The notes under the pieces: generated by a model
What the model was told of the DNA's origin: nothing
Databases searched by the model: none
What the model saw: only the letters and a program-made list of their open reading frames with translations
In this document: positions 1 through 27,894 of the stretch, piece by piece
How the letters are laid out: every line of letters starts with the position of its first letter
Position numbering within the stretch: the first letter of the stretch is position 1
Program-made: the position numbers and the translations under genes
Origin: a virus
DNA: 33,242 nucleotides
Virus record (IMG/VR): IMGVR_UViG_3300044614_000029
Span: 1-33,242 of that record
Strand: one strand, 5' to 3'

Positions 1-127
1 AAAACAACAAACGACTTGATACGGTAGAACTATTCAAATCTGTTGCTAATTGAATACCTTCAACACCGCCCACATTTGTTTTAAGCGTTCCGCTGCTATC
101 CACCCGAACACGCTCGCTACCACCCGT
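1..127. repeat. Terminal overlap, copy 1 (circular closure)
   Basis: Bases 1-127 are identical to the last 127 bases of the window. The repeat lies inside the coding sequence of a tail fibre, and the reading frame continues exactly when one copy is removed. A length of 127 is a standard maximum k-mer of short-read assemblers, so the natural reading is a circular contig of 33115 unique bases. A real direct terminal repeat is the alternative, but a packaging end in the middle of a fibre gene would be unusual. Confidence 0.95.
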
Positions 128-1579
128 ACCGATAGCCACCGTATCCGCAGCAGGGAAGAACACACCCGTATTGGTATCGGCAGAGGTAGTCAGCGCAGGA
201 GCCGAGACAGTACCCGCAGGCAGCAGCAGCGACCCGGTCATCGTGTCGCCGGTCTTGGCAACAGCGTTCGCCACGTTGAACACAGCGAAGGCGATCACCA
301 TCAGCTCGTCGTTCAGCGCGGCGGCAGAGGTCAGCACAATGCTAGTGCCGTTGGTCGCGGTGTAGTCATCACCCGGACGCAGCGTCACGCCGTTGAGTGA
401 CACGCTGATGCTGTTGGCGACGTAGCTTAGTGTCGCGCCATTGGCATCTGTGCCGGAGAACGTGGTCTGGCCTGCGGTGGCGACATACTCATAGGTCACC
501 ATCAGCGACTGCTGGGCAGCAGAAGCCTCAATCCATTGAGCGCCGTCATAGACCTTCATGCCGACAGGCGTGGTCGTGCGGTAGTACAGCGCACCAGTTA
601 CCAGCGCGTTGCCGTCGTTGTCCACTGCCGGGTCAGATGACTTGGCTCCAAGGTAGCGGTCATCAAAACTGTCCAAGGCAGCAGCCGCTGAAGCAGCCGA
701 AGCCGCTGCATTTGTTTCACTTGTCGCGGCAGCCGTCGCACTGTTGGCGGCATTAGTTGCGCTTGTACTTGCATTGCTGGCTGATGTGCTGGCAGCAGAG
801 GCCGACGATGCAGCATTGGATGCTGACGTACTGGCTGCACTCGCACTGTTCGATGCATTAGTCGCCGAGGTTGCTGCGTTACTGGCGCTAGTCGATGCCG
901 AGCTGGCCGAGTTAGATGCGTTAGTTGCGCTGGTCGAAGCATTCGACGCAGAAGTCGAGGCATTGCTGGCCTGCGTCGTTGCTGTGCTGGCAGAGCTGCT
1001 GGCGCTTGAGGCAGAGCTAGATGCCGAAGAAGCAGAGGATGCAGCCGCTGTAGCACTGTTAGCAGCGTTGGTCGCATAGGTCACCGCATTGGCTACATCG
1101 GCAGCGCTAATGCCTAGCGTTGGGTCACCGTTGGCATCGAATGCCAGCGTTTTGTTGGCACGATCTACCGCCCTCGGTAGCGTCATGTCAATTGTGGTCG
1201 GGTCTGTCTGCGGTGCAATCAACGCACGCTGCAGGCCTTCGGCATTCTGTTGGTTGAAGATGGTCTGCTGATCCAGCTCGTCGTTCAGCGTGTTAGCGAA
1301 GAAGTCGCCGCCGGTCACGAAGTCAGTCGTGCGCGAGATGGTACGGTTGCCGACAATAGCAATCTGCGTCGCACCTGTCGGCGTTGCAGTCAGCGTCACA
1401 AAGCCGGTGCCGTTGCTGTTGATCGTGACCGTGTAGTTGGTGGTCAAAGTCAACAGCGTATCGTCCCGGTACACCGCAATGTCGGTTGCAGCCAGGATCT
1501 CAAACGTAAAGTTATACGGGCCGGTGCCGCTTGCGGCATAGACCACCCGCCTTGTCACATTGTTAATTGGCACGCCCAT
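1..1579 (-). CDS. Tail fibre protein, N-terminal part (continues across the contig ends)
   Basis: This frame is open from the ATG at 1579 to base 1 and continues in frame at 33115 down to the stop at 32517, giving one protein of 725 residues. The N-terminus (MGVPINNVTRRVVYAASGTG) resembles the virion-anchoring domain of T7 gp17-type fibres. Residues of about 165-290 are a low-complexity Ala/Ser/Asn/Thr tract in rough heptads, expected to form a trimeric shaft. Residues of about 300-350 contain the common fibre segment LDSFDDRYLGAK...LYYRTTTPVGM, followed by a segment with SISVSLNGVTLRPGDDYTA, also frequent in fibres. The gene follows the internal virion proteins, the usual fibre position in T7-like maps. 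Composition changes sharply near codon 493 (about base 100): upstream is GC-rich, downstream AT-rich, which suggests a swapped receptor-binding end. The fibre identity is secure; the receptor is unknown. Confidence 0.9.
   Translation of the reverse strand, partial: MGVPINNVTRRVVYAASGTGPYNFTFEILAATDIAVYRDDTLLTLTTNYTVTINSNGTGFVTLTATPTGATQIAIVGNRTISRTTDFVTGGDFFANTLNDELDQQTIFNQQNAEGLQRALIAPQTDPTTIDMTLPRAVDRANKTLAFDANGDPTLGISAADVANAVTYATNAANSATAAASSASSASSSASSASSSASTATTQASNASTSASNASTSATNASNSASSASTSASNAATSATNASNSASAASTSASNAASSASAASTSASNASTSATNAANSATAAATSETNAAASAASAAAALDSFDDRYLGAKSSDPAVDNDGNALVTGALYYRTTTPVGMKVYDGAQWIEASAAQQSLMVTYEYVATAGQTTFSGTDANGATLSYVANSISVSLNGVTLRPGDDYTATNGTSIVLTSAAALNDELMVIAFAVFNVANAVAKTGDTMTGSLLLPAGTVSAPALTTSADTNTGVFFPAADTVAIGTGGSERVRVDSSGTLKTNVGGVEGIQLATDLNSSTVSSRLLF
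740..1085 (-). repeat. Degenerate heptad-coding repeats in the fibre shaft
   Basis: About 115 codons, read on the minus strand, are almost only Ala, Ser, Asn and Thr, in units such as SASNAST, SATNASN and SASSAST. At the DNA level these are degenerate 21-base tandem units. Such tracts form the thin coiled shaft of many podovirus fibres, and their unit number can change by slippage or recombination. Confidence 0.75.
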
Positions 1580-1614: not shown

Positions 1615-4536
1615 TTAATCTGGTTTGTAATAGATGCCAAAAGACTGACGCGCCTCGCCAATGTCCATGATTTTGTCTTGAATTTCAGGATATTCCGACA
1701 TTAGTTTCTGTTTTGCAAACCCCATGTATTTGCTGTGTACCTTCTGCACCATCTTCTGCTTTTGATCCAATGGCAATAGGTCAAAGCCTGGCATCGTCAT
1801 GGTGTCGAGAATTGTCTGCTTGGCATCAGTCTCTTTGCCGTAGATGGTCAGCAGTCGGTTGTACTGTTCCGGCGACAGCTCCACCGGCGCAGAGGCTGAT
1901 CCTTCGCCTTCGCCCAGGGTGAATGATGTCTTGCGGTCAGGCACGCCGATTGGCGAGCCGATCTCGACTAGCAGATCATCCACCTCAGAGAATTGATCCG
2001 GCGATACCCTGGTCGGCAGCACCAGCTCCAGCGGGTTACCCTGGCTGCGTTTCATTGTGTCGCCCCACAAATTCAGCGCCTCTGGCACCGACTCGCTAAA
2101 GTAAGGCAGGCGGCTGCGGTACTGGTTGAATGCTTCGACAAACCCACGCACACCCATAGGCAGATCCGGGCTGGCCTTGGTGTCCTTCTTGGTCGGGTCT
2201 AGCAGGCGATCGATGTTGGCCACAGCAGAGCTGTAAACGCCACCAGGTGAACCGCCAAAGAAAACACCACCAAACTGTTTAGTCAAACCGTTGACAATCT
2301 TCTCGCCATCTACCCGACCAGATTCATTGAAGCCAATCAGCTTGCCAACATCAGCAATACCCTGCAGATAAGGCTGCTCTTTCAAATACTCATACAGGCC
2401 GTAGGTCGCGCCAAGGAAAACTTCCTCGGTCTTGCTGGCATCGGGCTCATATTTTGCGTACTCGGCATAGTCGGCAGCAATAGCCATTAATGCACCAATC
2501 GGCTCCAAGCCTTGGAACGAATACCACTTGTCGCCCATCTTCATGCTGTACGGTTGCCAGCCAGTGCGCATCAATGCGTCGCGCTCTTCTTTGCGCTCCG
2601 GGCCGCGACCGGTCAAACCACCTTCAGCAGCCCACAAAGCAAAGCCTGCAAACACCGTTGAGCCCAAAGATACCTTGGCCATTGCCATGTCGCGCTCTGG
2701 CCCACCAGCTGCGATCTCCTGCCGCCAGCGTGACGATAGTGGCGCAAATGGTGTGCGCTCCACAACATTCAATCCAATGTTGGCTGGGGTCTTAAAGAAT
2801 GGAACAATGATCTTGCCAACCGGGTGATTAAATACTCTCTGCAATGAAGCCAAGGCCGGTGGCAGATCTGATTGGAAAGTGCCTTGCTTGGCATATGCCA
2901 TCGCTGCTTCATCCAGATCTCTCGGTGGGTTTTGCAATAGATCCTGCGCCTCGCTGGTGGCTTTGGCAACTGCGTCCTGCTCCGACATGCCAGAGTCAAT
3001 CGCATCGCGGTAAATCTTCTTTGAGCGCCGGGTAACCTGGGCATTCATCTCCATGCGATAAAGCACGCCCTTGAAGAATTCGTCCTCGGTCATCAACGCA
3101 CGACCAGGCAGCGTCACCGCTGTGCCGTAGTAGTCAAACCCCTTGCCGATCCAGCTATCCTGCTTTGCGCCGGTCATGCGCTGCAGTGTCTCGCCCATGC
3201 TCTCCATCGGAGCGCGACTGAGCTCAACCTTGCTGGCAATATCCAGCTGTGGTGTGTTTGAGCTCCATGCTTTAGATGCCAGCTCGAAACCTTCTTTGAT
3301 GGCATTGCGCAGCGACAGCGTCATCGTTAACGCCTCATCCAGCTCGATGCGCTCTTCCGCGCTACCAGGCACCCTGTCGCCAAACCAGCGCAGCCCAGGC
3401 GGCAGCTCGCCAGCCCGGATCTTCTGCGGCAGGTAATTGGAATACAGGCCAGCCACCAGCCGCTCGGGGATCTGGTACAGACCGAACAGCGAATTCGAAA
3501 CAATGTTCTTTGCGTGGGTGACCGGCGACGATAGCAGGCCATTGATCCATGTAGTCATCCAGACATCCTTAACGCCGGACATCATAGACTTTTCGACCAT
3601 TGCATTTTTGGCTGCGCGTGTCTCAAGCGACAGATAAGAGCGAGCCATATCGGTCAGCGCATTGTCGCCGCCAAACTCATCTAGTACCTGGCGCAGTGCC
3701 TGCGACTTGCCATCGCGTGGCATACGCATAACGGCCAGAGCTCGGGCTGTCTCAGTCTGAATGCCCTTAACGCCCTTCTGGATCAGGCCATGAAAAGCGA
3801 TCTGCTGACGCAGTGCCAGCTTGTCAATGTCAGATGCAGCGCCAGAATCAACCAACTTGAATAAACGATCAAGCTCAACAGCGCTAGACTCAAGCACCTG
3901 CAAAGCCTTGTAGGTATCTACAGCGCTCGGCAGCATCGTGCCGTCTGGTGATGTCAGGCGAGCGAGAAAAGACTCGCTAATACCGCTGTCTTCCGCTTTC
4001 TTTTTGATTTCGTCAAAGGTGACGCGCTTGGTCTTAATCCCCAGCGCATCGGCCACGCCACCAATCACGGCAGCTGCATCGTCACTCTGATAGCGCGACA
4101 GGTTGAACGGCTCAACAGGCACGCCAGCAGCACGCTCAGCTGTCGTTGGGCTCGGCTTGCCCTTGGTGGCACCGGCTGCTTTTCTAGCCTGTGTGGCCTG
4201 CTGCACCTGGGTGGTAAGCGGCTCGCCAGCTTCTGGAATTACGGTAACTCGGCCAACCTTTGCAGCCTCTGGCAGCGCATCAGCCGGCACAGCATCGCTA
4301 ACGATTCTGCGGCCAGCGCTTGGCTTTGCCTCGGTGACCATCTTGCGGAGAGCAGAGCCAAGACCAGCAACCTGCATCCCGTCCATGTTAGGCGAGCCAG
4401 GGTCGCCGCTCGGCATGTCTATCGGATCGGCAGCTGCTTCCATTGGAAACGGCTCTAGCGGCACCTCGCCGGTCGGCGGTGTAGGCACGTCAGGCAGGAT
4501 AGAACCGAGGCGCTGCTCAAGTGGTGCGGTTGCCAT
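1615..4536 (-). CDS. Large internal virion / DNA-ejection protein candidate (973 aa)
   Basis: The largest gene of the genome, placed between the 393-residue virion candidate and the tail fibre, where T7 carries its large internal core protein (gp16). The N-terminal 150 residues are Pro/Ala/Gly-rich and probably disordered. The middle contains WINGLLSSPVTHAKNIVSN (about residues 330-350), followed by PGRALMTEDEFFKGVLYRME and FFKTPANIGLNVVERTPF. This combination is typical of the LPD38-type large polyvalent proteins of podovirus ejectosomes. A weakly hydrophobic stretch (VSLGSTVFAGFALWAAEGG) could insert in a membrane. No lysozyme or transglycosylase motif was recognised. Its start is one base from the stop of the upstream gene at 4537, so the two are cotranslated. 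The family assignment is from memory of the motif; the ejection role is inferred from position and size. Confidence 0.7.
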   Translation of the reverse strand: MATAPLEQRLGSILPDVPTPPTGEVPLEPFPMEAAADPIDMPSGDPGSPNMDGMQVAGLGSALRKMVTEAKPSAGRRIVSDAVPADALPEAAKVGRVTVIPEAGEPLTTQVQQATQARKAAGATKGKPSPTTAERAAGVPVEPFNLSRYQSDDAAAVIGGVADALGIKTKRVTFDEIKKKAEDSGISESFLARLTSPDGTMLPSAVDTYKALQVLESSAVELDRLFKLVDSGAASDIDKLALRQQIAFHGLIQKGVKGIQTETARALAVMRMPRDGKSQALRQVLDEFGGDNALTDMARSYLSLETRAAKNAMVEKSMMSGVKDVWMTTWINGLLSSPVTHAKNIVSNSLFGLYQIPERLVAGLYSNYLPQKIRAGELPPGLRWFGDRVPGSAEERIELDEALTMTLSLRNAIKEGFELASKAWSSNTPQLDIASKVELSRAPMESMGETLQRMTGAKQDSWIGKGFDYYGTAVTLPGRALMTEDEFFKGVLYRMEMNAQVTRRSKKIYRDAIDSGMSEQDAVAKATSEAQDLLQNPPRDLDEAAMAYAKQGTFQSDLPPALASLQRVFNHPVGKIIVPFFKTPANIGLNVVERTPFAPLSSRWRQEIAAGGPERDMAMAKVSLGSTVFAGFALWAAEGGLTGRGPERKEERDALMRTGWQPYSMKMGDKWYSFQGLEPIGALMAIAADYAEYAKYEPDASKTEEVFLGATYGLYEYLKEQPYLQGIADVGKLIGFNESGRVDGEKIVNGLTKQFGGVFFGGSPGGVYSSAVANIDRLLDPTKKDTKASPDLPMGVRGFVEAFNQYRSRLPYFSESVPEALNLWGDTMKRSQGNPLELVLPTRVSPDQFSEVDDLLVEIGSPIGVPDRKTSFTLGEGEGSASAPVELSPEQYNRLLTIYGKETDAKQTILDTMTMPGFDLLPLDQKQKMVQKVHSKYMGFAKQKLMSEYPEIQDKIMDIGEARQSFGIYYKPD

Positions 4537-5718
4537 TTACTTTTTCTCCTCGCCCTGTGCCTTACGAATAAAGACAATGTTTTTCTTGCCATCACTCGCA
4601 CGCTCAAATTCAGTCCGCAATACTTTTGCTGGCAAACCTTTTAGTGTCTTAAGATCTGCTTCACTTGCAAATGTAATTGATTCAATCGCTTTGGGCGCAA
4701 ACACATCAGCTTTGTATTCTCTGCCGGCAATGTCTCCTGTCATCGGCTTGACGTTCTCTTTTCCGCTGACAGCATTGGCGCGAAACTGAACCTTGATGCC
4801 TTTGTTTGATCCTTGACCAAGTGCTAAGTCAGCATTATCTGTCACAAACACAGCAGCGTATGAGAATTGATTATCTTGACGCAAGAAATCAGTCAGATTG
4901 TCTGCGTTCATTTCTCTATATAGCGGCGCATCTGGCGCTATGACAGTAGGCTTTATGCTGCCTGGGCCAACAGGAAATTTGTCAATCGAATCGACACGCG
5001 GCCCTACAGGCGCAACATCCATAAGCCCGCCAGTTTTCCGCATGTAGCCTTCAACCATTTCGCCGGCAACCGGTGCCAGCGCCCTGCCTGCAGCTTTGCC
5101 AACCTTTGCAGCAATCGCAACGCCAGGCACAACATCCAATCCCTGCAGCACGCCAGTTCCGTAACTCAATGCGGCCTTGCCATACTCGCCCGCCTGCGCA
5201 GCCTCTCTTGCCTCACCAGCAGAGATACCTGCCTCCTGCGCGGCAAGTGGGATGACAAACGGCGTGACATCGACCAAGCCAATGCCAAGCGGTGCGCCAG
5301 AGCTCTCGCCGCCAAACATGGTTTGAGCCAGCCTGCGTGCGCGAACATTGTCCATGCCGGCGTTGTCAATCAGCATCTGCTGCATACCGGAAGCCAGCTT
5401 CTCGCGCAGGGTCATATCTTTTGGAATGACAGAGCCCACAACGCCGGCCTTCTGATCCTCTGCAATCCTGCGCATGATCATTTCCGATTGCGTTGCCAGC
5501 GGCATGTTGCGCATCATCTCCGCAGCCTGTTCAGGCGTGGTCGGCGCTTTAGGCAATCCAGCACCAGCAGGCGCATCTGTGCGCGTTTTGCTCGGGCCAG
5601 CGGCCAGCTGGACACCTTCTAGGCTGGGCTCCTCTGGCGCAGGCTCTGGTGGCGTGGTGGGGAAGTACCCCTCCACAATCATGTCCATGTAACGCTGTTC
5701 AATTTGGCTGTATGCCAT
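4537..5718 (-). CDS. Structural/ejected protein with a possible ADP-ribosyltransferase-like C-terminal domain (393 aa)
   Basis: The N-terminal 60 residues are Pro/Ala-rich. Residues of about 145-215 are hydrophobic and Gly/Ala-rich, like other internal virion proteins. The C-terminal 130 residues form a separate module: LYRE (about 267-270), then YAAVFVTDNADLALGQG (about 287-303) and KADVFAPKAIESITF (336-350). This order of an Arg in a Y-R motif, a middle strand with 'F-VTDN--LA', and a late E-x-I strand recalls the ART-like domains attached to phage polyvalent and MuF-type proteins. The family call is tentative, because the catalytic Glu was not placed with certainty. The DNA of this C-terminal module is AT-richer than its surroundings, which is consistent with separate acquisition. 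It sits directly between two internal virion candidates with one-base spacing, so a virion protein injected into the host is the likeliest context. Confidence 0.55.
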   Translation of the reverse strand: MAYSQIEQRYMDMIVEGYFPTTPPEPAPEEPSLEGVQLAAGPSKTRTDAPAGAGLPKAPTTPEQAAEMMRNMPLATQSEMIMRRIAEDQKAGVVGSVIPKDMTLREKLASGMQQMLIDNAGMDNVRARRLAQTMFGGESSGAPLGIGLVDVTPFVIPLAAQEAGISAGEAREAAQAGEYGKAALSYGTGVLQGLDVVPGVAIAAKVGKAAGRALAPVAGEMVEGYMRKTGGLMDVAPVGPRVDSIDKFPVGPGSIKPTVIAPDAPLYREMNADNLTDFLRQDNQFSYAAVFVTDNADLALGQGSNKGIKVQFRANAVSGKENVKPMTGDIAGREYKADVFAPKAIESITFASEADLKTLKGLPAKVLRTEFERASDGKKNIVFIRKAQGEEKK

Positions 5719-5719
5719 G

Positions 5720-7513
5720 TCACATTCCCTCAGATACTTTTAGCAGGCGCTCAAGTTCTTGGATCTGGCGCAGCCTTCTAGTACGGTCACCAGGATCTTT
5801 TGTCGCTTCAGCCTTTTGCTTTAACGCTGGCAGAGTCTGCCGGTTAATCGGGCCAGTAATCCAATCTCGGTCTGGCTTTGCGCGACCGCTCTTATCAATC
5901 ACATAATAATTTAGAGAATCCAGTGCCTGCTTTGCTTCAGAAGTATTTTTCTTTGCAAGGATTTCAGATTCAATCTGATTCAGTATCTGGCGCTCGGTTA
6001 TGGTTTCGCCCTTTGCCGTAACTTCAGCTTGTATCGCTAATGCCCTGGCTTTTAGTTCTTGCTTACGCTTAAATTCTGCGCTGTTCTTGTCCAGCACAAC
6101 AATGGTGCTAGGGTCAGCGTTAATGCCTGACAGCTTGTTCAATCCAGAATCAAGCTCTCTATCGCCAGCTTTGTTTTCGCTGCGCAAAGCCTTCAGCAGT
6201 GTTAGACGTTGGCCAACAGTCAAGTTGGGTATTCTGTCAATCTGCGCTTTGTCAGTAATCTTGCCATCAAAGATCATACCAAGCGCATTGTATTCAGACA
6301 TTGAATTGCCGGTGCCTTCTTTGTTTGGCTCAAGAATATCTTTGATCGTGCCAATCGGAACTGACCCTGGCGGCAGCGCCATCAAGTCTGCAACAAGTTT
6401 TTGCCGAGTTGGGTTTTTAGGGTCTTTGATTGGATATATCTGCTCAAGCAAATTGATTGCGGTTGATTCAGCAGTGCGCTTTTCATCCTCTCGCTTGCGT
6501 CGTGCAATCTCTTCTTTCTGATTAACGGCCAGCATATAGTTGGCAGTTACTTTGGCAACAGCATCAAAATCAGTTGCGACCATTTCCTTCAATACCTGAG
6601 ACATCTTGCCGACGTCGCCAGCTCTGATTTTGTTGAGCCCGACCGTTGGGTCTGCCAGAAACTCGTCGCTCATAACATGCTTAGTTACAGCATTAATTTT
6701 TGCCGTGCGCAACGCAACGCGAAATTTCTCGCTGTATTCTTTTTGCACGCCAGCGTCGCCGATCAGTAGCGACTGATTGGCAATGTTGATTTCTATATTC
6801 TTGGCAAGATCATTGATTGATCTTTGCTCACCATTTTGATCAATCCAAAAACCTCTGGAAACGGTAGCCTCTAGCAGCTGGATTGTGTTGTCAAAGTCTA
6901 AGTCAAACTTGGTAATGTCCTGCGATTTCTTGCGCTTTAACTCAGACTCATAGGCAGCGTTCAGCACCGTGTTGCCATGCGTTGCCATCGTTGCACGCAG
7001 CTTGATGGATGCCTCGCCATCAATCTTGGCTAACGACTTGGCGTACCCATCGGTCACAACAGAAATCTTATTTGCGACATCTGTCGAAGATGCTTTTCCG
7101 TTCTGCACATCAACTAGCAGCTTTGCTAATTCGTTTCGGCCTTCCATCTCAAAATAGCCGGACAGCTGCAGCGTCCGAGCCTTTTGCAATGCCTTGCCAT
7201 AGACCGTTACATCATTGGACATTTTGCCCACACCTGGAATTGCTGATGGCAATCCCTCTCTGGCAAGCGCGAGCTGTTGATCAGTGATTGGATTCTCTGC
7301 AGCAAACCGCAGCGCCTCTTCTTGCGCCATTTCCTTGGCCATGCCAAACACAGTCGTTGACATGCGATCAATAATGTCAGCCATCGTGGCCGCGCCTCTG
7401 GCCTCTTCTCTGGCTGCAGCCATAAAATCAACCTGTGGCGGCCCAACACGCTCCATCGGCACGCTGCCTGGTGCATCTATTTGGATTCGACCGGATTCAA
7501 TTCTGGTTGCCAT
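5720..7513 (-). CDS. Internal virion protein candidate (597 aa, helical)
   Basis: A long, almost entirely alpha-helical, charged protein with no recognised enzyme motif. It occupies the position of T7 gp15 between the gp14-like protein (7523-8200) and the larger ejection proteins. It has no signal peptide or clear membrane segment. Heavily charged helical stretches such as QKEEIARRKREDEKRTAES near the middle suggest a coiled, filament-like core component. The stop lies one base before the next start at 5718, a tight operon. The role is inferred from gene order. Confidence 0.6.
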   Translation of the reverse strand: MATRIESGRIQIDAPGSVPMERVGPPQVDFMAAAREEARGAATMADIIDRMSTTVFGMAKEMAQEEALRFAAENPITDQQLALAREGLPSAIPGVGKMSNDVTVYGKALQKARTLQLSGYFEMEGRNELAKLLVDVQNGKASSTDVANKISVVTDGYAKSLAKIDGEASIKLRATMATHGNTVLNAAYESELKRKKSQDITKFDLDFDNTIQLLEATVSRGFWIDQNGEQRSINDLAKNIEINIANQSLLIGDAGVQKEYSEKFRVALRTAKINAVTKHVMSDEFLADPTVGLNKIRAGDVGKMSQVLKEMVATDFDAVAKVTANYMLAVNQKEEIARRKREDEKRTAESTAINLLEQIYPIKDPKNPTRQKLVADLMALPPGSVPIGTIKDILEPNKEGTGNSMSEYNALGMIFDGKITDKAQIDRIPNLTVGQRLTLLKALRSENKAGDRELDSGLNKLSGINADPSTIVVLDKNSAEFKRKQELKARALAIQAEVTAKGETITERQILNQIESEILAKKNTSEAKQALDSLNYYVIDKSGRAKPDRDWITGPINRQTLPALKQKAEATKDPGDRTRRLRQIQELERLLKVSEGM

Positions 7514-7522
7514 GTTGTTGCC

Positions 7523-8200
7523 TTATGATCTGTAGCCAGTTTGGGCAAACTCTATTGCGCCACGGGTCAATGTGGCACCAGCCAACAAGCCAGCCTGCTG
7601 ACGTGCAGCTTTGCCAGCCTGAGTAAACTGACCAGCCTGGCGTTGTGCAGCAAACACGTTTAGGAAGTTCTGATAGTCAGTCGATTGGATCATCGCAGCT
7701 GCATCTTCAAACCCAAGCACGCGAGCTGTTAGCGCGTTCAGATCAGCAATGCCAACATCAAACATGGTGGCCTGCACATTCTCGCGCTGGATTGCAGCTG
7801 CGCTGCCTTCGCCAAATGCCACACCCGACGCAGCAGCTCGAGCTCTGGCTGTGGCATTGGTTGCCCTCAGATTCTTCAGCAGTTGATTGCCAGCGATCTG
7901 GTAATTCTGCGCCTCAACCTCTGCCTTCTTCAACATCCGGCCAGCCTGGATCTGCGCATACTGATCCGACATCTCTGCGCGAATCTCGGCCACCGCCAGG
8001 TTGTCGCGTGCCTGTAGCAGGTAACCTGTCTGCTGTTGGATACCAGCCGCCAGCTGCGCCTGCGAAGCAGCATAGGAGGAAATTAATCCAGCGCCTGCGA
8101 CTATCATCCCACCCGAAATGTTGCCAGCGCTCGCTGCTGCTGGAGCGCTTTGCATTATGGGCTGATTCCAGTATGCGCTTGTGTTGGTAGGTGCTGCCAT
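7523..8200 (-). CDS. Internal virion protein, T7 gp14-like (225 aa)
   Basis: This Ala/Gln-rich helical protein starts with a hydrophobic Gly/Ala segment (ISGGMIVAGAGLISSYAAS, about residues 28-46). It continues with long helices and the segment RARAAASGVAFGEGSAAAIQ (about 118-137), a frequent feature of podovirus internal core protein B. Length and position, immediately after tail tube B and before two larger helical proteins, match gp14, which makes the outer-membrane pore of the ejection channel in T7. Function is inferred from the pattern and synteny. Confidence 0.7.
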   Translation of the reverse strand: MAAPTNTSAYWNQPIMQSAPAAASAGNISGGMIVAGAGLISSYAASQAQLAAGIQQQTGYLLQARDNLAVAEIRAEMSDQYAQIQAGRMLKKAEVEAQNYQIAGNQLLKNLRATNATARARAAASGVAFGEGSAAAIQRENVQATMFDVGIADLNALTARVLGFEDAAAMIQSTDYQNFLNVFAAQRQAGQFTQAGKAARQQAGLLAGATLTRGAIEFAQTGYRS

Positions 8201-8202
8201 GT

Positions 8203-10416
8203 CTATGTTCCCGAGTAAACGGCCACGCGATAGTCAAGGCCGAGCAAGTTCATCTTCAGCGGCAGATTCTGCGACACCTCAATCGACTGCTCGCGGCTGT
8301 AACCCAGCACACCATTGACCCGCTTGATGCCGGTGAAGGTAGGCTCCGGGTCATCCAGCAACGGATTATCCAACAGCCTAAACGCTACCGGCTGATTATT
8401 CAGCACAATGTTTTGTGTCTCTTCCAGCACCGCGCTGATCTCAACGATACGCTTCTTGAACGATACCCGGCTGCCGGTCTGCAGCTTGATCTCAACCGGC
8501 ATCGTCTTGACATACACGGTGATCGGTAAGCCTACCTCGTAGCTGGTGGTCGATGCGCGGTCAAACGTCACCGAGCCGCCACCGCTTACAGTCTCGTTAC
8601 TCTGCGGCACGCCGTCAGTAATGACATTCAGCGCCTTGCCAATATGCGGCAGGCTAGAGGCACTAGCTGCAGCGCCACCAGTAAATGCGCAGTCGGTATA
8701 CAGATTGTCCTGAAACAGCTCAATAAAGTACCTTGTGGTGCTGTTGAATACACGCTTGGTCACCGCATAGATCTGCGTCACATCCACGCCAACGTCGATA
8801 AACTCACCGTCGGTGGTGTACTCAGACGGCGATGTAATCTGCTGGCTGCGCATGATGGAGAAGACCGCCATGCTGCCATCGTTAGTGTTGGTCATTAGCA
8901 ACAGATCTGCCTCTTCTGTACTAGATGCCCGACGCAAAGCAATCCGCTGCGGCCCCTTCAGCAGGTGACCAGACAACAGCGAGATCCGCTGGGTGATGTA
9001 GGTCAGCTGGGTGTCGCTAAAGAGAAACTCATTGAGCGACTTGCCCTGGCGCTGGATGTAGACCGAACCAGACTCAACCGACTGCACCCGAGTGCCAGGC
9101 TTAATCCCATTTCGGCTGACGTTCTTAAACGTAAACGACAGCGGGGTGATCGGCTCAGTACCCTGCTGCGGCACAAAGAATTCACCGCCGGTGGTAAACA
9201 CTTGGAAATCACGCGAGCTGATGATGTCGGTGATGACGTTCAGATCGTTGGTGTCTAGCGTCGCCTCGACCGCATCATCGTCCAAAGACTCGAATGGTAC
9301 AAAGTCAAAGAATAGCCCGATCTTGCTGCCCCACACGGTCGATGGCCGCGACTTACTGCCGCCAAAGTACAGCCGACCCTCATGGAATGTCACGCTGCGT
9401 GGCCAGCCTCTGGTGCTCGACCAGACATCCTCATAATTCGATTCAAGTTCCCAGCGACCAGCATCAATCACCGAAGTATTAAAAAATGGGTATTCGGTAA
9501 CAGCCTCGACCACCGTTGACGATATGTATCTCGTAATCCTTGCCCGACCCTGTGGGCTGGCATTGACGTACTGATTGACCGACTCTGTTGTCCAAGTGGT
9601 GACTGCGTAATTGCTTGCGCTCGTTGGCGCTGTCGTCCATGCTGGGGTTACCGTTGCCACCTTGGTGCTGCCGACATAATCCTCAATAATCCTGATCTGG
9701 CCAGCACCTGTACCGCTGGTGATCGTGACATACATGCCGTTGTAGATGTCATCAGTAGCGCTAGATGTTGCCTTCAGCGTGATCGTGGTGCTGGTGCCAG
9801 CCTGTGCTGCGCCGCTGTCGTGGTTAGTTGCAGAGGCTGTCAGCGTGATGTTTCCTGATACCGCAGATGGTGTCAGAGTCGAGCCGATGTTCGTATCAAA
9901 GTTAATGTTGAATGCGTACTTAGGAATGCTGTCAAAGGTAATTGTGGTGGCCGTCCAAGCCGTATCGCTGGTGCGTGTTATGCGCACCGGCTGCAGGTCA
10001 GGATGCACCACAATCAGCGTGTCAGCCGACTGCGTCCAGCACATATCGTCAACGATGCTGCTGCCGATGGTGGTGGTCAGGTAGTTATTCCCGCTGCCAT
10101 TGATGTTGGTCTGTACTACACCATTCTTGATGATATACATGCGGTTATGCGTAAAGCACAACATGTAGGAATCATCGACAGAAAATGAGAATGGCACCAA
10201 GCGCACGCCGTTGCCTGCAGATGCTGTACTGGTATTAGGCAGTTCAAGAATATGCTTCAAGCCTGGGCGGCGACGCAGGCCACCTTGCGGCTGGATCAAG
10301 ACATTCGTTGCTTTGGCCAGCGCATTGCCATACTGCTGCAAATCGACACGCGCACGCAGCAACGGGTCGAGCTCACCCGTCGAGAAGTTCGTTGTAAAGT
10401 CAACGAAGCGGGTCAT
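8203..10416 (-). CDS. Tail tubular protein B / nozzle (737 aa)
   Basis: The N-terminus (FVDFTTNFSTGELDPLLRAR, then NALAKATNVLIQPQGGLRRR) is the highly characteristic opening of podovirus nozzle proteins (T7 gp12 family). The rest is rich in beta-strand and in Ser/Thr, as expected for a beta-propeller-like tube, and the length is near the usual 700-800 residues. The protein forms the distal tube of the short tail, below the gp11-like adaptor and above the fibre and nozzle tip. The start overlaps the stop of the gp11-like gene by one base at 10416. Confidence 0.92.
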   Translation of the reverse strand: MTRFVDFTTNFSTGELDPLLRARVDLQQYGNALAKATNVLIQPQGGLRRRPGLKHILELPNTSTASAGNGVRLVPFSFSVDDSYMLCFTHNRMYIIKNGVVQTNINGSGNNYLTTTIGSSIVDDMCWTQSADTLIVVHPDLQPVRITRTSDTAWTATTITFDSIPKYAFNINFDTNIGSTLTPSAVSGNITLTASATNHDSGAAQAGTSTTITLKATSSATDDIYNGMYVTITSGTGAGQIRIIEDYVGSTKVATVTPAWTTAPTSASNYAVTTWTTESVNQYVNASPQGRARITRYISSTVVEAVTEYPFFNTSVIDAGRWELESNYEDVWSSTRGWPRSVTFHEGRLYFGGSKSRPSTVWGSKIGLFFDFVPFESLDDDAVEATLDTNDLNVITDIISSRDFQVFTTGGEFFVPQQGTEPITPLSFTFKNVSRNGIKPGTRVQSVESGSVYIQRQGKSLNEFLFSDTQLTYITQRISLLSGHLLKGPQRIALRRASSTEEADLLLMTNTNDGSMAVFSIMRSQQITSPSEYTTDGEFIDVGVDVTQIYAVTKRVFNSTTRYFIELFQDNLYTDCAFTGGAAASASSLPHIGKALNVITDGVPQSNETVSGGGSVTFDRASTTSYEVGLPITVYVKTMPVEIKLQTGSRVSFKKRIVEISAVLEETQNIVLNNQPVAFRLLDNPLLDDPEPTFTGIKRVNGVLGYSREQSIEVSQNLPLKMNLLGLDYRVAVYSGT

Positions 10417-11030
10417 CAGTTCCTCACCGAAACCAAAGTGTAGTCTTCAATAACGCGCACCGGCTGATTCTTGCCATCAATCACAGCAGCCTGCCGGAAG
10501 AATCCACCACGCCCATTTTCAGCTGGATCGCCAACAGCGATCTGCCGCCAGCGCAACGCCTTGTCACCTTGTTCTGTAATTGGCTCCGCAACGTGCCAGG
10601 CAATCATGTATTTCAGCAACTGCACAAAGTATTGCGGCATTGCATATTCTGGTGTCTGGTACTGGTAGTCGATATAAACCGACTCCAGATTCGTCAGCAG
10701 CTTGTCGCCTTGGATCTCCCAATCGACACTAATGAAGCCGCCAATCGCAGCGGAATCGCGCACAGAATGCGGATTACCTAGCCGGTCACCAGGCAAAAGG
10801 TATTCATATTTCCAAAAGCTGGTGGGCGTAGTAATCAGCCGCGCCAGCTGGATCTTCTTCATGGAAAATGACCAGGGGTGCATCATCAAGGTCGAATCTC
10901 GGATGTCTGGATATAGACGGTCGCAGACCGAGCTCTCGTCGGTGCCGTCGTTAAAAGATGAGATTGCCTTCGCGCCCAGCAGAATCAGCGCGTCAGAGCA
11001 AATCGAAACACCTGTATCGCCTGCTGCCAT
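10416..11030 (-). CDS. Tail tubular protein A / head-tail adaptor (204 aa)
   Basis: The N-terminus (SICSDALILLGAKAISSFND) and the segment SSVCDRLYPDIRDSTLMMHPWSFSMKK match the gp11-type adaptor family. In that family a conserved 'hPW-FA' segment follows a predicted helix pair. The length matches the family (about 190-210). The protein would sit between the portal and tail tube B. It is preceded by a hairpin (11051-11081) that separates it from the head genes. Confidence 0.9.
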   Translation of the reverse strand: MAAGDTGVSICSDALILLGAKAISSFNDGTDESSVCDRLYPDIRDSTLMMHPWSFSMKKIQLARLITTPTSFWKYEYLLPGDRLGNPHSVRDSAAIGGFISVDWEIQGDKLLTNLESVYIDYQYQTPEYAMPQYFVQLLKYMIAWHVAEPITEQGDKALRWRQIAVGDPAENGRGGFFRQAAVIDGKNQPVRVIEDYTLVSVRN

Positions 11031-22762: not shown

Positions 22763-23087
22763 TGTTTCCCTCCAACTGATCTCGCATCATAGGTATAAAG
22801 TCATCCAGTAAAAGGCAGACGCGCCAGGGTTGGCCGTTGCGCCGGTAGACTACCACCGGCACCTCGTGCGGCTGCGCACAGGCCTCGACCTGTTGCGACC
22901 AGGCATCAATCTGCAACCGCTCTTGCCGCTTAACCTCAAGCCTAAAGTGCTGGATCGTGATGTCGTCCGCACCATCTCTGGCCTGCCCCAGGTTGCGCTT
23001 GACCACGAACCCGAGCTCATCGGTCAGCAGCTTGGCCAGCTCACGCTCGCCAGCCGCACCCTTGTTCCGCTTGCCGCGACCGTTCAT
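22737..23087 (-). CDS. PD-(D/E)XK nuclease, Holliday-junction-resolvase-like (116 aa)
   Basis: The chosen start overlaps the methyltransferase stop (ATGA); a start 12 codons upstream would overlap more. The fold signature is complete: KGAAGERELAKLL (9-21) with the helix-1 Glu (E14), GADDI (39-43) with a metal-binding Asp, and RLEVKRQ (49-55) giving the E-x-K motif, followed by a helix with AWSQQVEA. The size and the motif pattern fit small Hjc-like resolvases or related VRR-like nucleases of phage. Resolution of branched replication or recombination DNA is the probable job beside the YqaJ/RecT module. Confidence 0.65.
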   Translation of the reverse strand: MNGRGKRNKGAAGERELAKLLTDELGFVVKRNLGQARDGADDITIQHFRLEVKRQERLQIDAWSQQVEACAQPHEVPVVVYRRNGQPWRVCLLLDDFIPMMRDQLEGNNANEAEAG

Positions 23088-24460
23088 GCGCCAGCCCTCA
23101 TTTGAATTCGTTTGCCAATCCAACCCATGACAGGCACCGCCATGCTGTTACCCAGCGCCTTGTACCGCGGGCCGTCAGGCGACTCTGGTGCTTTGCGCCA
23201 AGGGATGTTGGTATAGTTGTCAGGGAATCCTTGCAGGCGCTCGCACTCCACGGGCGTAAGGCGACGCACAGCCATGCTGACAGCGTGTACAGCAGCGACT
23301 TGGTTGGTGACTTCGGTTGATTGTGGGCTACGACTCGGATCGTTGGTGGCGGTCAAGGTCGGGGCTATTGGCTGAACCACACTCAACATTCCACCAGCCC
23401 TACCAGCAACTCGCATAGTGGGCGATAAATCATTAGTCGCATCTCTACCATCATCATTGCGACTAAAAGCAATCGGCTGCGCTACGCCCTGCAATACCAT
23501 ACCAATGTGGTCGCCATCTGTTTTGTCGGATCGGATCGTCTGCGACGTTGTAGATAGTGTCTGGTTATATCCATCAAACGCCATCGGCTGCGTCAACAAT
23601 GGCGGGTGCTGACCCTTTGCAAGCGTGAAGCATGGATCACCCGGCTGCGGGTTTGATCCGTTCTGCGGCGATGTTATGTTGGTCGTGTCGTAAACAATCG
23701 GCTGCGCGATCAAATCGGTCGCATCTTTGTAATCACGCGCCTTCATCGCACTAGCCGTACCATCATCAACGTATTCACCAAACGCAACCATGCGAGCGGT
23801 TACTGGTTGCATATACTCACCAGCGGCTAACTCAACGTCGCTTCCCCAGCCACCGCTATTAGCGCGTGCCTTAAAGGTTCCGGCAACTTTTTGCCCCGCT
23901 TCTCGGCTCGGCGCAGGATCCCGGCGCAGGCTTTCTGGCTCAAAAAGAACCTCGGCGGCAGGTCGCCAATCTCCAAGGTATCCGACAACGAACACACGAC
24001 GGCGGCGCTGGGCCACTCCGAAGTATTGAGCGTCAAGCACTCTGTATGCGAACCCATACCCGAGTTCTGCCAGCGCCCCGAGGAAGGAACCAAAGTCCCG
24101 CCCACCGTTGCTACTGAGAACACCCGGCACGTTTTCCCATACGCACCACTTGGGTCTAAAGTGGTCAAGAATCCCGCAATAGACAAGGGCAAGGTTTCCC
24201 CTTGGGTCTGCGAGTCCTTTGCGAAGTCCGGCGACGGAAAAAGATTGGCAAGGGGTTCCACCGACCAGAAGGTCAACTGTTCCAAGATCCCACTCCTTAT
24301 AGTTAGTCATATCACCAAGGTTTTTGACCGCTGGATAATGATGCGCCAGCACAGCAGCAGGAAAAGGCTCAATCTCTGCAAAGCCTGCAGCCTCCCAACC
24401 TAGCTGGTGCCACGCCACCGTCGCGGCCTCAATCCCCGAACACACCGACAAGTACCGCAT
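23084..24460 (-). CDS. DNA (cytosine-5) methyltransferase (458 aa)
   Basis: All core C5-MTase motifs are visible: motif I SVCSGIEAATVAW (5-17, SAM site), motif IV GGTPCQSFS (68-76) with the catalytic Cys71, motif VI WENVPG (108-113), motif VIII QRRRRVFVVG (151-160), and near the end RLTPVECERLQGFPDNYT and GNSMAVPVMGW (motifs IX-X). A long Ser/Asp-rich variable stretch between VIII and IX holds the target-recognition region. There is no cognate restriction gene nearby, so it is an orphan enzyme that probably protects phage DNA from host restriction. The start overlaps the RHH-like stop by one base. Confidence 0.93.
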   Translation of the reverse strand: MRYLSVCSGIEAATVAWHQLGWEAAGFAEIEPFPAAVLAHHYPAVKNLGDMTNYKEWDLGTVDLLVGGTPCQSFSVAGLRKGLADPRGNLALVYCGILDHFRPKWCVWENVPGVLSSNGGRDFGSFLGALAELGYGFAYRVLDAQYFGVAQRRRRVFVVGYLGDWRPAAEVLFEPESLRRDPAPSREAGQKVAGTFKARANSGGWGSDVELAAGEYMQPVTARMVAFGEYVDDGTASAMKARDYKDATDLIAQPIVYDTTNITSPQNGSNPQPGDPCFTLAKGQHPPLLTQPMAFDGYNQTLSTTSQTIRSDKTDGDHIGMVLQGVAQPIAFSRNDDGRDATNDLSPTMRVAGRAGGMLSVVQPIAPTLTATNDPSRSPQSTEVTNQVAAVHAVSMAVRRLTPVECERLQGFPDNYTNIPWRKAPESPDGPRYKALGNSMAVPVMGWIGKRIQMRAGA

Positions 24461-24819: not shown

Positions 24820-25467
24820 ATGTCCAAATATGTAGCTTACTTTCGAGTTTCCACTGAGCGCCAAGGTCAGTCTGGCCTCGGCCTCGAAGCCCAGCAGGCA
24901 GCAGTCAAAGCCTACGCTGACGGCATCATTCATTCATTCACCGAGATCGAATCAGGCAAGCACGATGACCGGCCACAGCTGGCCGCTGCCATCGCCATGT
25001 GCAAAGCCACAGGCGCTGCTCTGCTGATTGCCAAGATCGACCGACTGAGCCGCCAGGCAGCGTTCCTGCTGACCCTGCGTGACTCTGGCGTGCAGATCGT
25101 TGCAGCCGACATGCCGCACGCTGGTACGCTTGAGTTCGGTATCCGCGCTGTTGTCGCCCAGCATGAGCGCGAAGAAATCAGCCGCCGTACCAAGGCAGCA
25201 CTGCAGGCAGCCAAGGCTCGCGGTGTCAAACTTGGTAACCCAAAACCACAGGCAGCAGCAGAAGCCGGTGCAGCCGCTGGCCGCGCCAACGCAGACGCAT
25301 TTGCAGCTCGCATGATGCCCATCATCGCCGACCTGCAGCGTGCAGGCATCACCAGCCTGCGCTCAATCGCAGCAGCGCTTACAGCTCGCGGCGTGCAGAC
25401 CGCTCGCGGTGGCCGTACCTGGGGCGCTGCCCAAGTCTCTAACCTTATTCAGCGGGGTGCAGTATGA
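24820..25467 (+). CDS. Small serine recombinase of resolvase/invertase type (215 aa)
   Basis: The N-terminal catalytic domain is intact: YFRVST (7-12) with nucleophile Ser11 and Arg9, LLIAKIDRLSRQ (68-79) with Asp74, Arg75 and Arg78, and the E-helix EREEISRRTKAALQAAKARG (116-135). The C-terminal part LRSIAAALTARGVQTARGG is the usual HTH for site recognition. The length fits Tn3/Hin-class enzymes, not large integrases. A ribosome-binding site GGGAGA precedes the ATG. It heads the rightward operon, divergent from the RHH-like gene. Multimer resolution or inversion are possible roles; an inversion partner site was not seen. Confidence 0.9.
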   Translation: MSKYVAYFRVSTERQGQSGLGLEAQQAAVKAYADGIIHSFTEIESGKHDDRPQLAAAIAMCKATGAALLIAKIDRLSRQAAFLLTLRDSGVQIVAADMPHAGTLEFGIRAVVAQHEREEISRRTKAALQAAKARGVKLGNPKPQAAAEAGAAAGRANADAFAARMMPIIADLQRAGITSLRSIAAALTARGVQTARGGRTWGAAQVSNLIQRGAV

Positions 25468-25544: not shown

Positions 25545-25843
25545 TCACCGGCCAGATCTTGCGCGATGCCCAGCTGGCACTGTTCGAGCAACGCGACAGC
25601 GACTTCCTGGCTCAGTGCCGGGAAATAGCAGCTGAGATCTGCAGGCAACAAGGCTCGGTGTCCATCAACGATGTCCGAGCTGCCATCAACCTGCCTGCGG
25701 AGCTGCACCCATCAGTCCTGGGTGCCGTTTTCCGGGGTAAAAAATTCACAGCAATCGGCTACACAGAAGCCGCTCACAAAGCCGCTCACGCTCGCGTGGT
25801 GCGGGTCTATAAACTAACGGAGGAAACATGTCAGGCAAACTAA
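25541..25843 (+). CDS. Small winged-helix-like protein (100 aa), unknown
   Basis: Helical N-terminus (SDFLAQCREIAAEICRQQGS), then VSINDVRAAINLP, and LGAVFRGKKFTAIGYTEAAH with a possible wing. The arrangement of 'G-vsInDVR' with 'hPsvlGAvFRgKkF' is a frequent pattern of short proteins in phage replication and recombination operons. DNA binding is likely but not shown. It overlaps the exonuclease start by 16 bases. Confidence 0.5.
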   Translation: MITGQILRDAQLALFEQRDSDFLAQCREIAAEICRQQGSVSINDVRAAINLPAELHPSVLGAVFRGKKFTAIGYTEAAHKAAHARVVRVYKLTEETCQAN

Positions 25844-26784
25844 CACCGGATTACATGATGAGCGCCAGCCGCCTGCCAGCGCTGCTCGGGCTGTCTCGCT
25901 ACCAGACACCCAACGACGAACTGCAGTACAGCATTAACGCAAGCAAAGGCCTGCCACGCGAAGACAAACAGAACGAAGCGATGTCCTGGGGCGACCGCAT
26001 CGAGCGCCTGATCCTGCTGGAAACAGCCAAGCGCCTTGAGCTGCTCGAGCTCTCAACCGAGTTTGATTCGGCCTTCTTTCACAAGACGTTGCCGCTGGCC
26101 TGCAGCCTGGACGGCTGGGCGCATGGCCGTGGCCAGAAGATCCGCACCGACATGGACGCAGGCATTATCGTGGTCGGCCAAGATGAGATCATGCTGGACG
26201 GGTATGGCGTGCTTGAGGCCAAGCTAACCGCAGTGTCGCCAGAGGAAATGCCAGCGCTTTACCGTGGGCCTGTGCAGTTGCAGGCACAGATGGACATTAT
26301 GCAGGCCAAGTGGGGCGCAGTCTGCGTGCTGTACCAGGGAACGATCTTGCGCATCTTCTTGTTCGAGCCGCACAGGCAGACACTAGAAACGATCAAGACT
26401 GCGGTGCTTGAGTTTCAGAACAAGATTGAGAAGTACAAAGCCACCGGCGAGATTGACTATTACCCACCAGCCAACAGCAAAGATGCCGACCGTATGTACC
26501 CGGCAGCTGATGAGGCTGCGGTGGTCAACCTGCCTGGTCGCGCTGAACAGCTGGCCGACCAGATCCTAGCCGCCAATGCCGCCATCAAAGAGGCAGAAGG
26601 CAAGCGCAGCGAGGCAGAGACAGAGCTCAAAGCTATGCTGGGTCAGGCATCCAAAGGCACTGTCGGACGCTTCGAGATTCGCTGGCCGATGCGTAGCTAC
26701 AAGGCGACACCAGAGAAGGTGGTGCCTGCGAAGGACGCATACAGCATCAGACAATCAACCCTATCAATCAAAGAGGCACTATGA
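25828..26784 (+). CDS. YqaJ-type (lambda exonuclease family) recombination exonuclease (318 aa)
   Basis: The YqaJ/alkaline exonuclease signature is complete: MSASRLPALLGLSRY (11-25), SWGDRIERLILLE (53-65) with the helix Glu, LACSLDGWA (90-98) with a metal Asp, GVLEAKLTA (127-135) giving E-x-K, and VQLQAQMDIM (149-158) for the Q-x-x-Q-x-Q helix. The C-terminus has a helical region and a small beta part. It would resect double-strand ends so that the RecT-like protein downstream can anneal. It is followed at ATGA by a 57-residue gene. Confidence 0.88.
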   Translation: MSGKLTPDYMMSASRLPALLGLSRYQTPNDELQYSINASKGLPREDKQNEAMSWGDRIERLILLETAKRLELLELSTEFDSAFFHKTLPLACSLDGWAHGRGQKIRTDMDAGIIVVGQDEIMLDGYGVLEAKLTAVSPEEMPALYRGPVQLQAQMDIMQAKWGAVCVLYQGTILRIFLFEPHRQTLETIKTAVLEFQNKIEKYKATGEIDYYPPANSKDADRMYPAADEAAVVNLPGRAEQLADQILAANAAIKEAEGKRSEAETELKAMLGQASKGTVGRFEIRWPMRSYKATPEKVVPAKDAYSIRQSTLSIKEAL

Positions 26785-26954
26785 CCAAGATCGAAGAGGC
26801 GCACGCCAGAGCTGTTGTCGCGCTGCTGAATACATTGCCTGAATGTACCGAGGATCAAGCCGAAGAGATCGTCGAGTCATTCACCGCGCTTGTGCTGTAC
26901 ACCATTGAAGCATTCTTACCAGGAGACATTGATGACCAACCTCGTTACAACTAG
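26781..26954 (+). CDS. Small acidic helical protein (57 aa), unknown
   Basis: It reads MTKIEEAHARAVVALLNTLP and ends GDIDDQPRYN. The start overlaps the exonuclease stop (ATGA) and the end overlaps the annealase start by 23 bases. It is acidic and helical. No family recognised; the coupling suggests it belongs to the recombination unit. Confidence 0.5.
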   Translation: MTKIEEAHARAVVALLNTLPECTEDQAEEIVESFTALVLYTIEAFLPGDIDDQPRYN

Positions 26955-27894
26955 ACAGGGCTTCGCGCCTGCAACCTTTACCGAAGCCCGGCAGTTTGCC
27001 GAAGAGCTGGCATCGTCCAGCCTAGTACCAAAAGCCTACACTGGCAAGCCGCTGGATATACTGGTGGCCATGCAGTGGGGCGCAGAGATCGGCTTGGCAC
27101 CCATGCAGGCACTGCAAAACATCGCAGTAATCAATGGCAAGCCCAGCGTGTACGGTGACGCAGCAATAGCGTTGGTGCAGTCCAGCCCACATTGCGAAGA
27201 CATCGAAGAGTATTTTGAGAACGAAGGCACGCCAAACCCAGTAGCTGTCTGCGTTGCAAAGCGCAAAGGTCGCAAGCCAGTGGTTGCCAAGTTCAGCGTC
27301 GAAGATGCTAAAAAAGCTGGCTTGTGGAGCAAGCAGGGGCCGTGGACGGCGTACCCAAAGCGGATGCTGCAGATGCGAGCTCGAGGGTTTGCGCTGCGTG
27401 ATGCCTTTCCTGACGCGCTGAAGGGCTTGATCACAGTCGAAGAGGCGCAAGACTTCCCGCCAGAGGCCAAGCCACAGCCAGCCAAGAATATCACGCCGCT
27501 GCCATCTAACCCGCTGGATCGGATCGCACCACCACCACCGCCGGTAGATGAGTATGTGCCGGATCTGGAGGAAGCCGTTGTTGTAGTGCCAGCGCCAGCA
27601 GGTGAGTTCCAGCTGATGGTGCCAGGCAAGGACGGTGGCGAGCCGGTGGTCAAGTCTACCCACGCAACGCAGCTGGATTGGTCTGCAGCCTACGAAGAGC
27701 TGGCCGACAAGACCATGTCAGCAGGCAAGGCAAGCGAGCGTGACCGGATGACAGCGCTAAAAAATTTCAAGGAAGCGAACCAGGCGATGTTCAAACAGAT
27801 GGAGCCTGGTGCCATGCTGCAGCACTCGCAGGCCTACCAGAAGCGGCTGCGAATGCTGGGCGCTGAAATGAACAAGGAAAAAAATCCCGACTGA
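26932..27894 (+). CDS. RecT-type single-strand annealing protein (320 aa)
   Basis: The start follows AGGAG with proper spacing; an in-frame start 14 codons upstream has none. The core RecT pattern is clear: ATFTEARQFAEELASSSLVP (9-28), then PLDILVAMQWGAEIGLAPMQ and ALQNIAVINGKPSVYGDAA, and later GPWTAYPKRMLQMRARGFAL with DAFPDALKGLITVEEAQD. The C-terminal third is Pro-rich linker and a helical tail. It anneals the strands exposed by the YqaJ nuclease. The rightward operon ends here. Confidence 0.88.
   Translation: MTNLVTTRQGFAPATFTEARQFAEELASSSLVPKAYTGKPLDILVAMQWGAEIGLAPMQALQNIAVINGKPSVYGDAAIALVQSSPHCEDIEEYFENEGTPNPVAVCVAKRKGRKPVVAKFSVEDAKKAGLWSKQGPWTAYPKRMLQMRARGFALRDAFPDALKGLITVEEAQDFPPEAKPQPAKNITPLPSNPLDRIAPPPPPVDEYVPDLEEAVVVVPAPAGEFQLMVPGKDGGEPVVKSTHATQLDWSAAYEELADKTMSAGKASERDRMTALKNFKEANQAMFKQMEPGAMLQHSQAYQKRLRMLGAEMNKEKNPD

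What the first reader, a model, noticed from the sequence alone, without database searches (positions are those of the whole stretch)
4537..5340. Possible ADP-ribosyltransferase-like module on an ejected virion protein
The C-terminal 130 residues of the 393-residue protein are a distinct module with an LYRE motif, a VFVTDNADLALGQG segment and a late E-x-I strand, in the order of ART-like domains. Its place among internal virion proteins suggests delivery into the host with the DNA, like T4 Alt. This would be an undescribed injected effector if real.
Basis: inference. Interest (0 to 1): 0.6.

Follow-up and report, generated by a model that had tools for sequence, protein, structure and literature searches.

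The report
Swappable ADP-ribosyltransferase-like phage effector module
A short-tailed phage appears to carry, on a protein encoded among its DNA-ejection proteins, a previously unnamed enzyme-like domain with the ADP-ribosyltransferase fold, and close relatives have swapped exactly this piece for unrelated domains, which suggests an interchangeable warhead injected into the bacterium with the DNA.

Summary
In detail: the minus-strand ORF 4537-5718 (393 aa) ends in a distinct module. Its true limits are residues 238-393 (4540-5007). The module is a member of a domain family absent from Pfam, found in at least 43 phage/prophage proteins, mostly 1,700-3,800-aa polyvalent proteins. AlphaFold2 models are confident (pLDDT 87 and 90). 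[quoted passage not shown] the window module itself matches more weakly. A profile comparison with KptA agrees. Position R268 is Arg or His in 40/43, T293 is Thr or Ser in 37/43, and E334 (GREY) is invariant. The surprise is the genetics. In relatives with the same gene order, the first 237 residues are 71-97% identical while the module is replaced by ART-PolyVal, DUF7178-type, other unrelated domains, or nothing, with sharp breakpoints at residue ~237 and the stop codon. The module is also AT-richer than its trunk (46 against 60% GC). This looks like a polymorphic effector slot in a T7-like ejection gene cluster. Enzyme activity, the target, and actual packaging and injection are inferred, not shown.

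The parts
4537..5718 (-). 393-aa protein P0001: conserved N-terminal trunk plus C-terminal ART-like module
   Evidence: trunk homologues
5008..5718 (-). Trunk, residues 1-237, conserved among relatives; its end (about residues 213-237, EALAPVAGEMVEGYMRKTGGLMDVAP in relatives) is the left anchor of the swap
4540..5007 (-). Swappable C-terminal module, residues 238-393; new ART-fold domain family (alignments A3/A5)
   Evidence: GC 0.455 vs 0.595 in trunk
4666..4926 (-). ART-like core, residues 265-351 (strand 1 LYRE through the strand before the C-terminal helices)
   Evidence: AlphaFold2 secondary structure; homologue model
4915..4917 (-). R268, strand-1 position of the triad (Arg 29, His 11, Ser 2, Thr 1 of 43); aligned with the His of KptA LYHGT
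4840..4842 (-). T293, strand-2 position (Thr 23, Ser 14, Ala 6 of 43); the next residue, D294, is invariant
4717..4719 (-). E334 in GREY, invariant in 43 of 43; the likely catalytic Glu
4546..4551 (-). GAGGAG inside the last codons, apparent Shine-Dalgarno for the next gene (ATG at 4536); right anchor of the swap
1615..4536 (-). gp16-like internal virion protein (P0002, 973 aa)
   Evidence: phrog_6651 E 5e-33; 'internal virion protein D' homologues
5720..7513 (-). P0003, 597 aa, gp15-position protein
   Evidence: position; similar to Methylophilales phage MEP301 gp26 region
7523..8200 (-). P0005, gp14-like internal virion protein (weak)
   Evidence: phrog_418 E 0.006
8203..10416 (-). Tail tubular protein B-like
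   Evidence: phrog_376 tail protein E 1e-118
10416..11030 (-). Tail tubular protein A-like
   Evidence: phrog_394 tail protein E 5e-30

Best explanation
Residues 238-393 are an ADP-ribosyltransferase-fold effector domain fused to a small protein of a T7-like podovirus ejection cluster. Shown here: the family, the predicted fold, the conserved residues, the gene order, and the replacement of this domain by unrelated ones in close relatives. Inferred: the trunk is packaged and leaves the virion with the gp14/15/16-like proteins; inside the cell the module binds NAD+ in the cleft formed by R268, T293 and E334 and transfers ADP-ribose (or hydrolyses NAD+) on a host target early in infection, to favour takeover or blunt defence. 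Phages exchange the module by recombination between the conserved trunk end and the conserved junction with the next gene, so different relatives deliver different effectors through the same carrier.
For: Fold: AlphaFold2 pLDDT 86.8, pTM 0.83 for the window module and pLDDT 90.4, pTM 0.85 for an H-type homologue. Foldseek with the homologue: ranks 1-5 all Tpt1/KptA (probability 0.99, 0.99, 0.97, 0.84, 0.82), then other ARTs including PARP14, RhsP2, TreTu and DarT; with the window module: Tpt1 0.72 and 0.60, RhsP2 0.23. Profile: family vs KptA score 36.5, P 7e-5, against a maximum of 21.5 in 150 column shuffles; accepted ART pair KptA vs ART-PolyVal 31.4. Residues. Slot: same gene order, trunk and neighbours mostly well conserved, module replaced; in L003 the replacement is ART-PolyVal, E 9e-17; five contigs lack any module, so it is dispensable. 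Context: gp16-like neighbour; the same domain sits in polyvalent proteins with LPD38, ddrB-ParB, LPD1, ART-PolyVal.
Against: No Foldseek PDB E-value is below 0.02 and TM-scores are 0.35-0.49, so the fold match is superfamily level; the window module's own match is weaker than the homologue's. The T293 position is Ala in 6 of 43 and the R268 position Ser/Thr in 3, so some members may be inactive or work differently. Direct profile comparison with ART-PolyVal is marginal (20.1 vs shuffle maximum 18.7) and with DarT absent. No proteomics was available; packaging is argued from gene order.
Confidence: 0.62

Rival explanations
1. The module has the ART fold but is not a transferase: it binds NAD+, ADP-ribose or nucleic acid without catalysis (a sponge, decoy or sensor), for example to soak up defence signals.
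For: Variation at the first two triad positions; degenerate relatives L067/L068 lack the LYRE and GREY motifs altogether.
Against: E334, D294, A299, G301, Q302 and G307 are invariant in 43 sequences, and the first position toggles only between Arg and His in 40 of 43, as expected for an active site.
Confidence: 0.2
2. It is an RNA 2'-phosphotransferase-like enzyme (Tpt1/KptA activity) that repairs or processes host or phage RNA.
For: Best structural and profile match is Tpt1/KptA.
Against: The KptA N-terminal winged-helix lobe is absent and the KptA VGxRxG arginine is replaced by GQGxxxG; an invariant Glu is present instead.
Confidence: 0.1
3. The C-terminal part is only a structural or assembly element of the ejection apparatus, and its variability is ordinary mosaicism.
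For: Virion genes are mosaic; low-probability Foldseek rows to tail-tube proteins exist.
Against: Those rows have probability at or below 0.06 and rmsd 12-19 A; five contigs lack the part entirely while keeping the trunk and neighbours; a sister phage carries ART-PolyVal there.
Confidence: 0.08

Closest known systems
ART-PolyVal (PF18760, Tox-ART-HYD2 clade) in polyvalent proteins (PMC5512222)
   Same: ART fold, same kinds of carrier proteins, and the same gene slot in sister phage L003
   Different: Polyvalent ARTs are described as H-Y-D; this family is R/H-T/S-E and does not match PF18760
Tpt1/KptA RNA 2'-phosphotransferase (PF01885)
   Same: Best structural and profile match
   Different: No N-terminal lobe; invariant Glu in GREY; not recovered by the PF01885 model
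T4 Alt (Alt/VIP2 ART)
   Same: R-S-E-like residue set; proposed injected ART
   Different: No sequence match found; carrier is a T7-like ejection-cluster protein; [quoted passage not shown]
MuF polymorphic toxins of temperate phages (PMC5576092)
   Same: Constant phage structural N-terminus, variable or absent C-terminal toxin domain, ART among the domains
   Different: Carrier is not MuF; gene lies among gp14/15/16-like genes; no separate ORF, hence no immunity gene, lies between it and the next gene
Thalassomonas phage BA3 BA3_0002 (2,631 aa, annotated hypothetical)
   Same: Same domain, 37.6% identical over residues 251-386
   Different: There the domain lies inside a polyvalent protein with methyltransferase and LPD38 domains

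Membership tests
ART superfamily | Split-sheet ART fold | tested here: met
   predicted model, superfamily-level similarity
ART superfamily | Conserved triad R/H - S/T/Y - E/D on strands 1, 2 and 5 | tested here: met
   R/H 40/43, T/S 37/43, E 43/43; spatial arrangement not measured
ART superfamily | NAD+ dependent ADP-ribosyl transfer | not testable with these tools
   Needs biochemistry
ART-PolyVal / HYD2 | Match to PF18760 | tested here: not met
   No Pfam match for P0001 and no PF18760 match among 35 members
ART-PolyVal / HYD2 | H-Y-D active site | tested here: not met
   R/H - T/S - E instead
KptA/Tpt1 | Match to PF01885 with N-terminal lobe | tested here: not met
   No PF01885 match; only the ART lobe aligns
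T4 Alt / VIP2 | Sequence match to the Alt/VIP2 family | tested here: not met
   No Alt-type Pfam or PHROG match
Polyvalent proteins | Several unrelated effector or LPD domains in one large virion-associated protein | tested here: not met
   P0001 has one module on a 237-aa trunk; homologous domains do occur in true polyvalent proteins
Polymorphic toxin-like system | Constant N-terminus with interchangeable unrelated C-terminal domains | tested here: met
   Six unrelated module groups among 16 proteins plus a no-module form; breakpoints
Polymorphic toxin-like system | Adjacent immunity gene | tested here: not met
   P0001 stop and P0002 start abut
T7-like internal virion (ejection) protein | Encoded with gp14/15/16-like genes after tail tubular genes | tested here: met
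T7-like internal virion (ejection) protein | Present in virion and ejected | not testable with these tools
   No proteomics for this phage

The most novel reading that the evidence does not exclude
T7-like podoviruses carry a dedicated polymorphic-effector gene in their ejection cluster: a fixed packaging/ejection trunk whose C-terminal enzyme is swapped as a cassette between phages, delivering different host-modifying activities, including a new R/H-T/S-E ART family, with the incoming DNA.
Probability: 0.5. Interest if true: 0.75.

Novelty: new variant of a known kind. Interest (0 to 1): 0.58.

Why it matters
Injected phage effectors are known for T4 Alt and postulated for polyvalent and MuF proteins. 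A 2022 survey found ARTs in only 3% of podoviruses (PMC9503650). A small carrier whose cargo is exchanged while its neighbours stay conserved offers a way to read out new phage effectors by reading one gene position in many genomes, and a natural experiment on which host targets matter early in infection. It also adds an undescribed ART family that lacks any Pfam model.

Tried and rejected
Single-sequence Pfam and PDB searches gave nothing for the module. The first genome-contig scan found no relatives; a second with a broader profile found five bacterial-genome loci. No plasmid match. Sampling 274 genomes of one bacterial class found no family member beyond the seed genome. DarT comparison gave nothing. 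A first hhalign run was superseded by explicit local mode. MEP301 gp25 holds the equivalent position and looks similar by eye, but phmmer found no significant match to the slot proteins. A literature search for 'internal virion protein' with 'polymorphic toxin' returned no paper; subscription papers are not covered.

Full report
What is there. The ORF at 4537-5718 on the minus strand encodes 393 residues. The genes run tail tubular A and B-like (10416-11030, 8203-10416), a weak gp14-like protein (7523-8200), P0003 (5720-7513), P0001, and a 973-aa gp16-like internal virion protein (1615-4536; phrog_6651 E 5e-33; homologues annotated 'internal virion protein D' in Pelagibacter phage HTVC011P and others). 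HTVC011P has no separate gene at the P0001 position, while Methylophilales phage MEP301 has a short 161-aa one, gp25.

The gene is a slot. A search with P0001 found 25 viral contigs. Most match only about the first 215-254 residues, at 71-97% identity, then diverge completely. Gene order is the same in the contigs long enough to judge, and in the closest relatives the flanking genes are highly similar. L002 is the clearest case: trunk 97%, P0002 96%, P0003 87% identical, module unrelated. At DNA level, left breakpoints cluster at gene nucleotides 703-727 (residue ~237) in L002, L004, L005, L009-L013, L015, L016 and L025, and similarity mostly resumes at the stop codon or just around the next start. 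The last codons of P0001 carry the apparent ribosome-binding site of the next gene (GAGGAG), and most relatives keep a purine-rich GGAG-type end even with different modules, which would explain the fixed right edge. By BLAST the modules of 16 proteins fall into six unrelated groups; one group includes DUF7178 matches and L003 is ART-PolyVal, PF18760 E 9e-17. Five contigs (two sequence types) stop after about 215 trunk residues and a short tail. The window module is 45.5% GC against 59.5% for its trunk. L022, L024, L030-L033, L043 and L044 carry the same module on trunks whose middle part differs.

The module family. Iterative searches produced 43 aligned members (A5). Most lie inside large polyvalent proteins, for example Thalassomonas phage BA3 BA3_0002, and L074 and L076, with LPD38, ddrB-ParB, LPD1, ART-PolyVal, RadC and InPase domains. 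No Pfam family covers it; the only PHROG is phrog_15406, a 2,789-position polyvalent profile labelled DNA methyltransferase, matched by 27 of 35 members.

Fold and active site. The window module models at pLDDT 86.8, pTM 0.83; the H-type homologue from L070 at pLDDT 90.4, pTM 0.85. With the homologue, PDB ranks 1-5 are all Tpt1/KptA (probability 0.82-0.99), followed mostly by other ART-superfamily enzymes. With the window module the higher-probability rows are Tpt1 (0.72, 0.60), but several unrelated low-probability rows rank above by E-value. In the viral library the best match is the BA3 protein (A8HNV9, unnamed in the table; identified here by its 34% identity and length, an inference), and annotated DarT and PARP proteins appear lower. 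Profile-profile alignment with twelve KptA sequences gave score 36.5, P 7e-5, probability 63; 150 column-shuffled controls reached at most 21.5, and the accepted ART pair KptA vs ART-PolyVal scored 31.4. Four virion-gene families from the same phages, compared with A5, scored at most 15.9. The KptA alignment puts R268 on the His of LYHGT and T293 on the Ser of HLS. Across 43 sequences: R268 is Arg 29/His 11/Ser 2/Thr 1; T293 is Thr 23/Ser 14/Ala 6; D294, A299, G301, Q302, G307 and E334 are invariant; E346 is Glu in only 11. The catalytic Glu is therefore most likely E334.

How it probably works. Shown: family, predicted fold, conservation, slot and swapping. Inferred from T7 biology and gene position: the trunk travels with the ejection proteins. 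Inferred from the ART superfamily: NAD+ chemistry on a host molecule. Its absence from some relatives argues that the module is an accessory effector and not part of the ejection machine. The lack of an adjacent immunity gene argues against a bacterial-competition toxin.

Known and new. Iyer et al. [quoted passage not shown] Jamet et al. 2017 (PMC5576092) describe MuF proteins with variable C-terminal toxin domains, including ART. The present case resembles both but differs in carrier and active-site signature. I found no paper describing a polymorphic slot among T7-like internal virion proteins, within an open-access library only.

Limits. Fold matches are superfamily level. The trunk loci come from metagenomic contigs, some nearly identical, so the number of independent swaps is smaller than the number of contigs; assembly chimeras are unlikely to explain repeated near-identical breakpoints but were not tested with reads.

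Noticed in passing
L013:5439-6572: A different 139-aa module in the same slot matches phrog_2579 (labelled ParB C-terminal domain, E 6.5e-35); its IYRAVP...EWGY pattern also looks ART-like by eye.
   Followed up: partly
L011, L012, L020, L021, L025, L015: The slot carries DUF7178 (PF23802) or a relative, a domain of unknown function with no paper found; a candidate injected effector.
   Followed up: partly
L004:3250-5637, L005, L009: A 520-560-aa slot module with no Pfam or PHROG match at all.
   Followed up: no
L067, L068: Degenerate members of the module family in polyvalent proteins lack the strand-1 and GREY motifs and may be inactive.
   Followed up: no
L034:1325-2881: 519-aa protein with the same module at its C-terminus and an N-terminal stretch (MSSGVGQQNRGPGTYIAENPKVAQRY) that resembles another ART by eye; Pfam gives nothing.
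   Followed up: partly
window 23084-24460: C-5 cytosine DNA methylase (PF00145 E 1.6e-54).
   Followed up: no
window 24820-25467: Serine resolvase N-terminal domain (PF00239 E 8e-26), beside YqaJ (25828-26784) and RecT (26890-27894) recombination genes; could bear on cassette exchange.
   Followed up: no
window 2-1579: Tail-fibre-position protein with a long Ala/Ser/Asn-rich low-complexity repeat stretch (about residues 165-300).
   Followed up: no
L001 (NC_009990.1) BA3_0003, BA3_0004: Two short annotated genes lie wholly inside the 2,631-aa BA3_0002 gene on the same strand and may be spurious.
   Followed up: no
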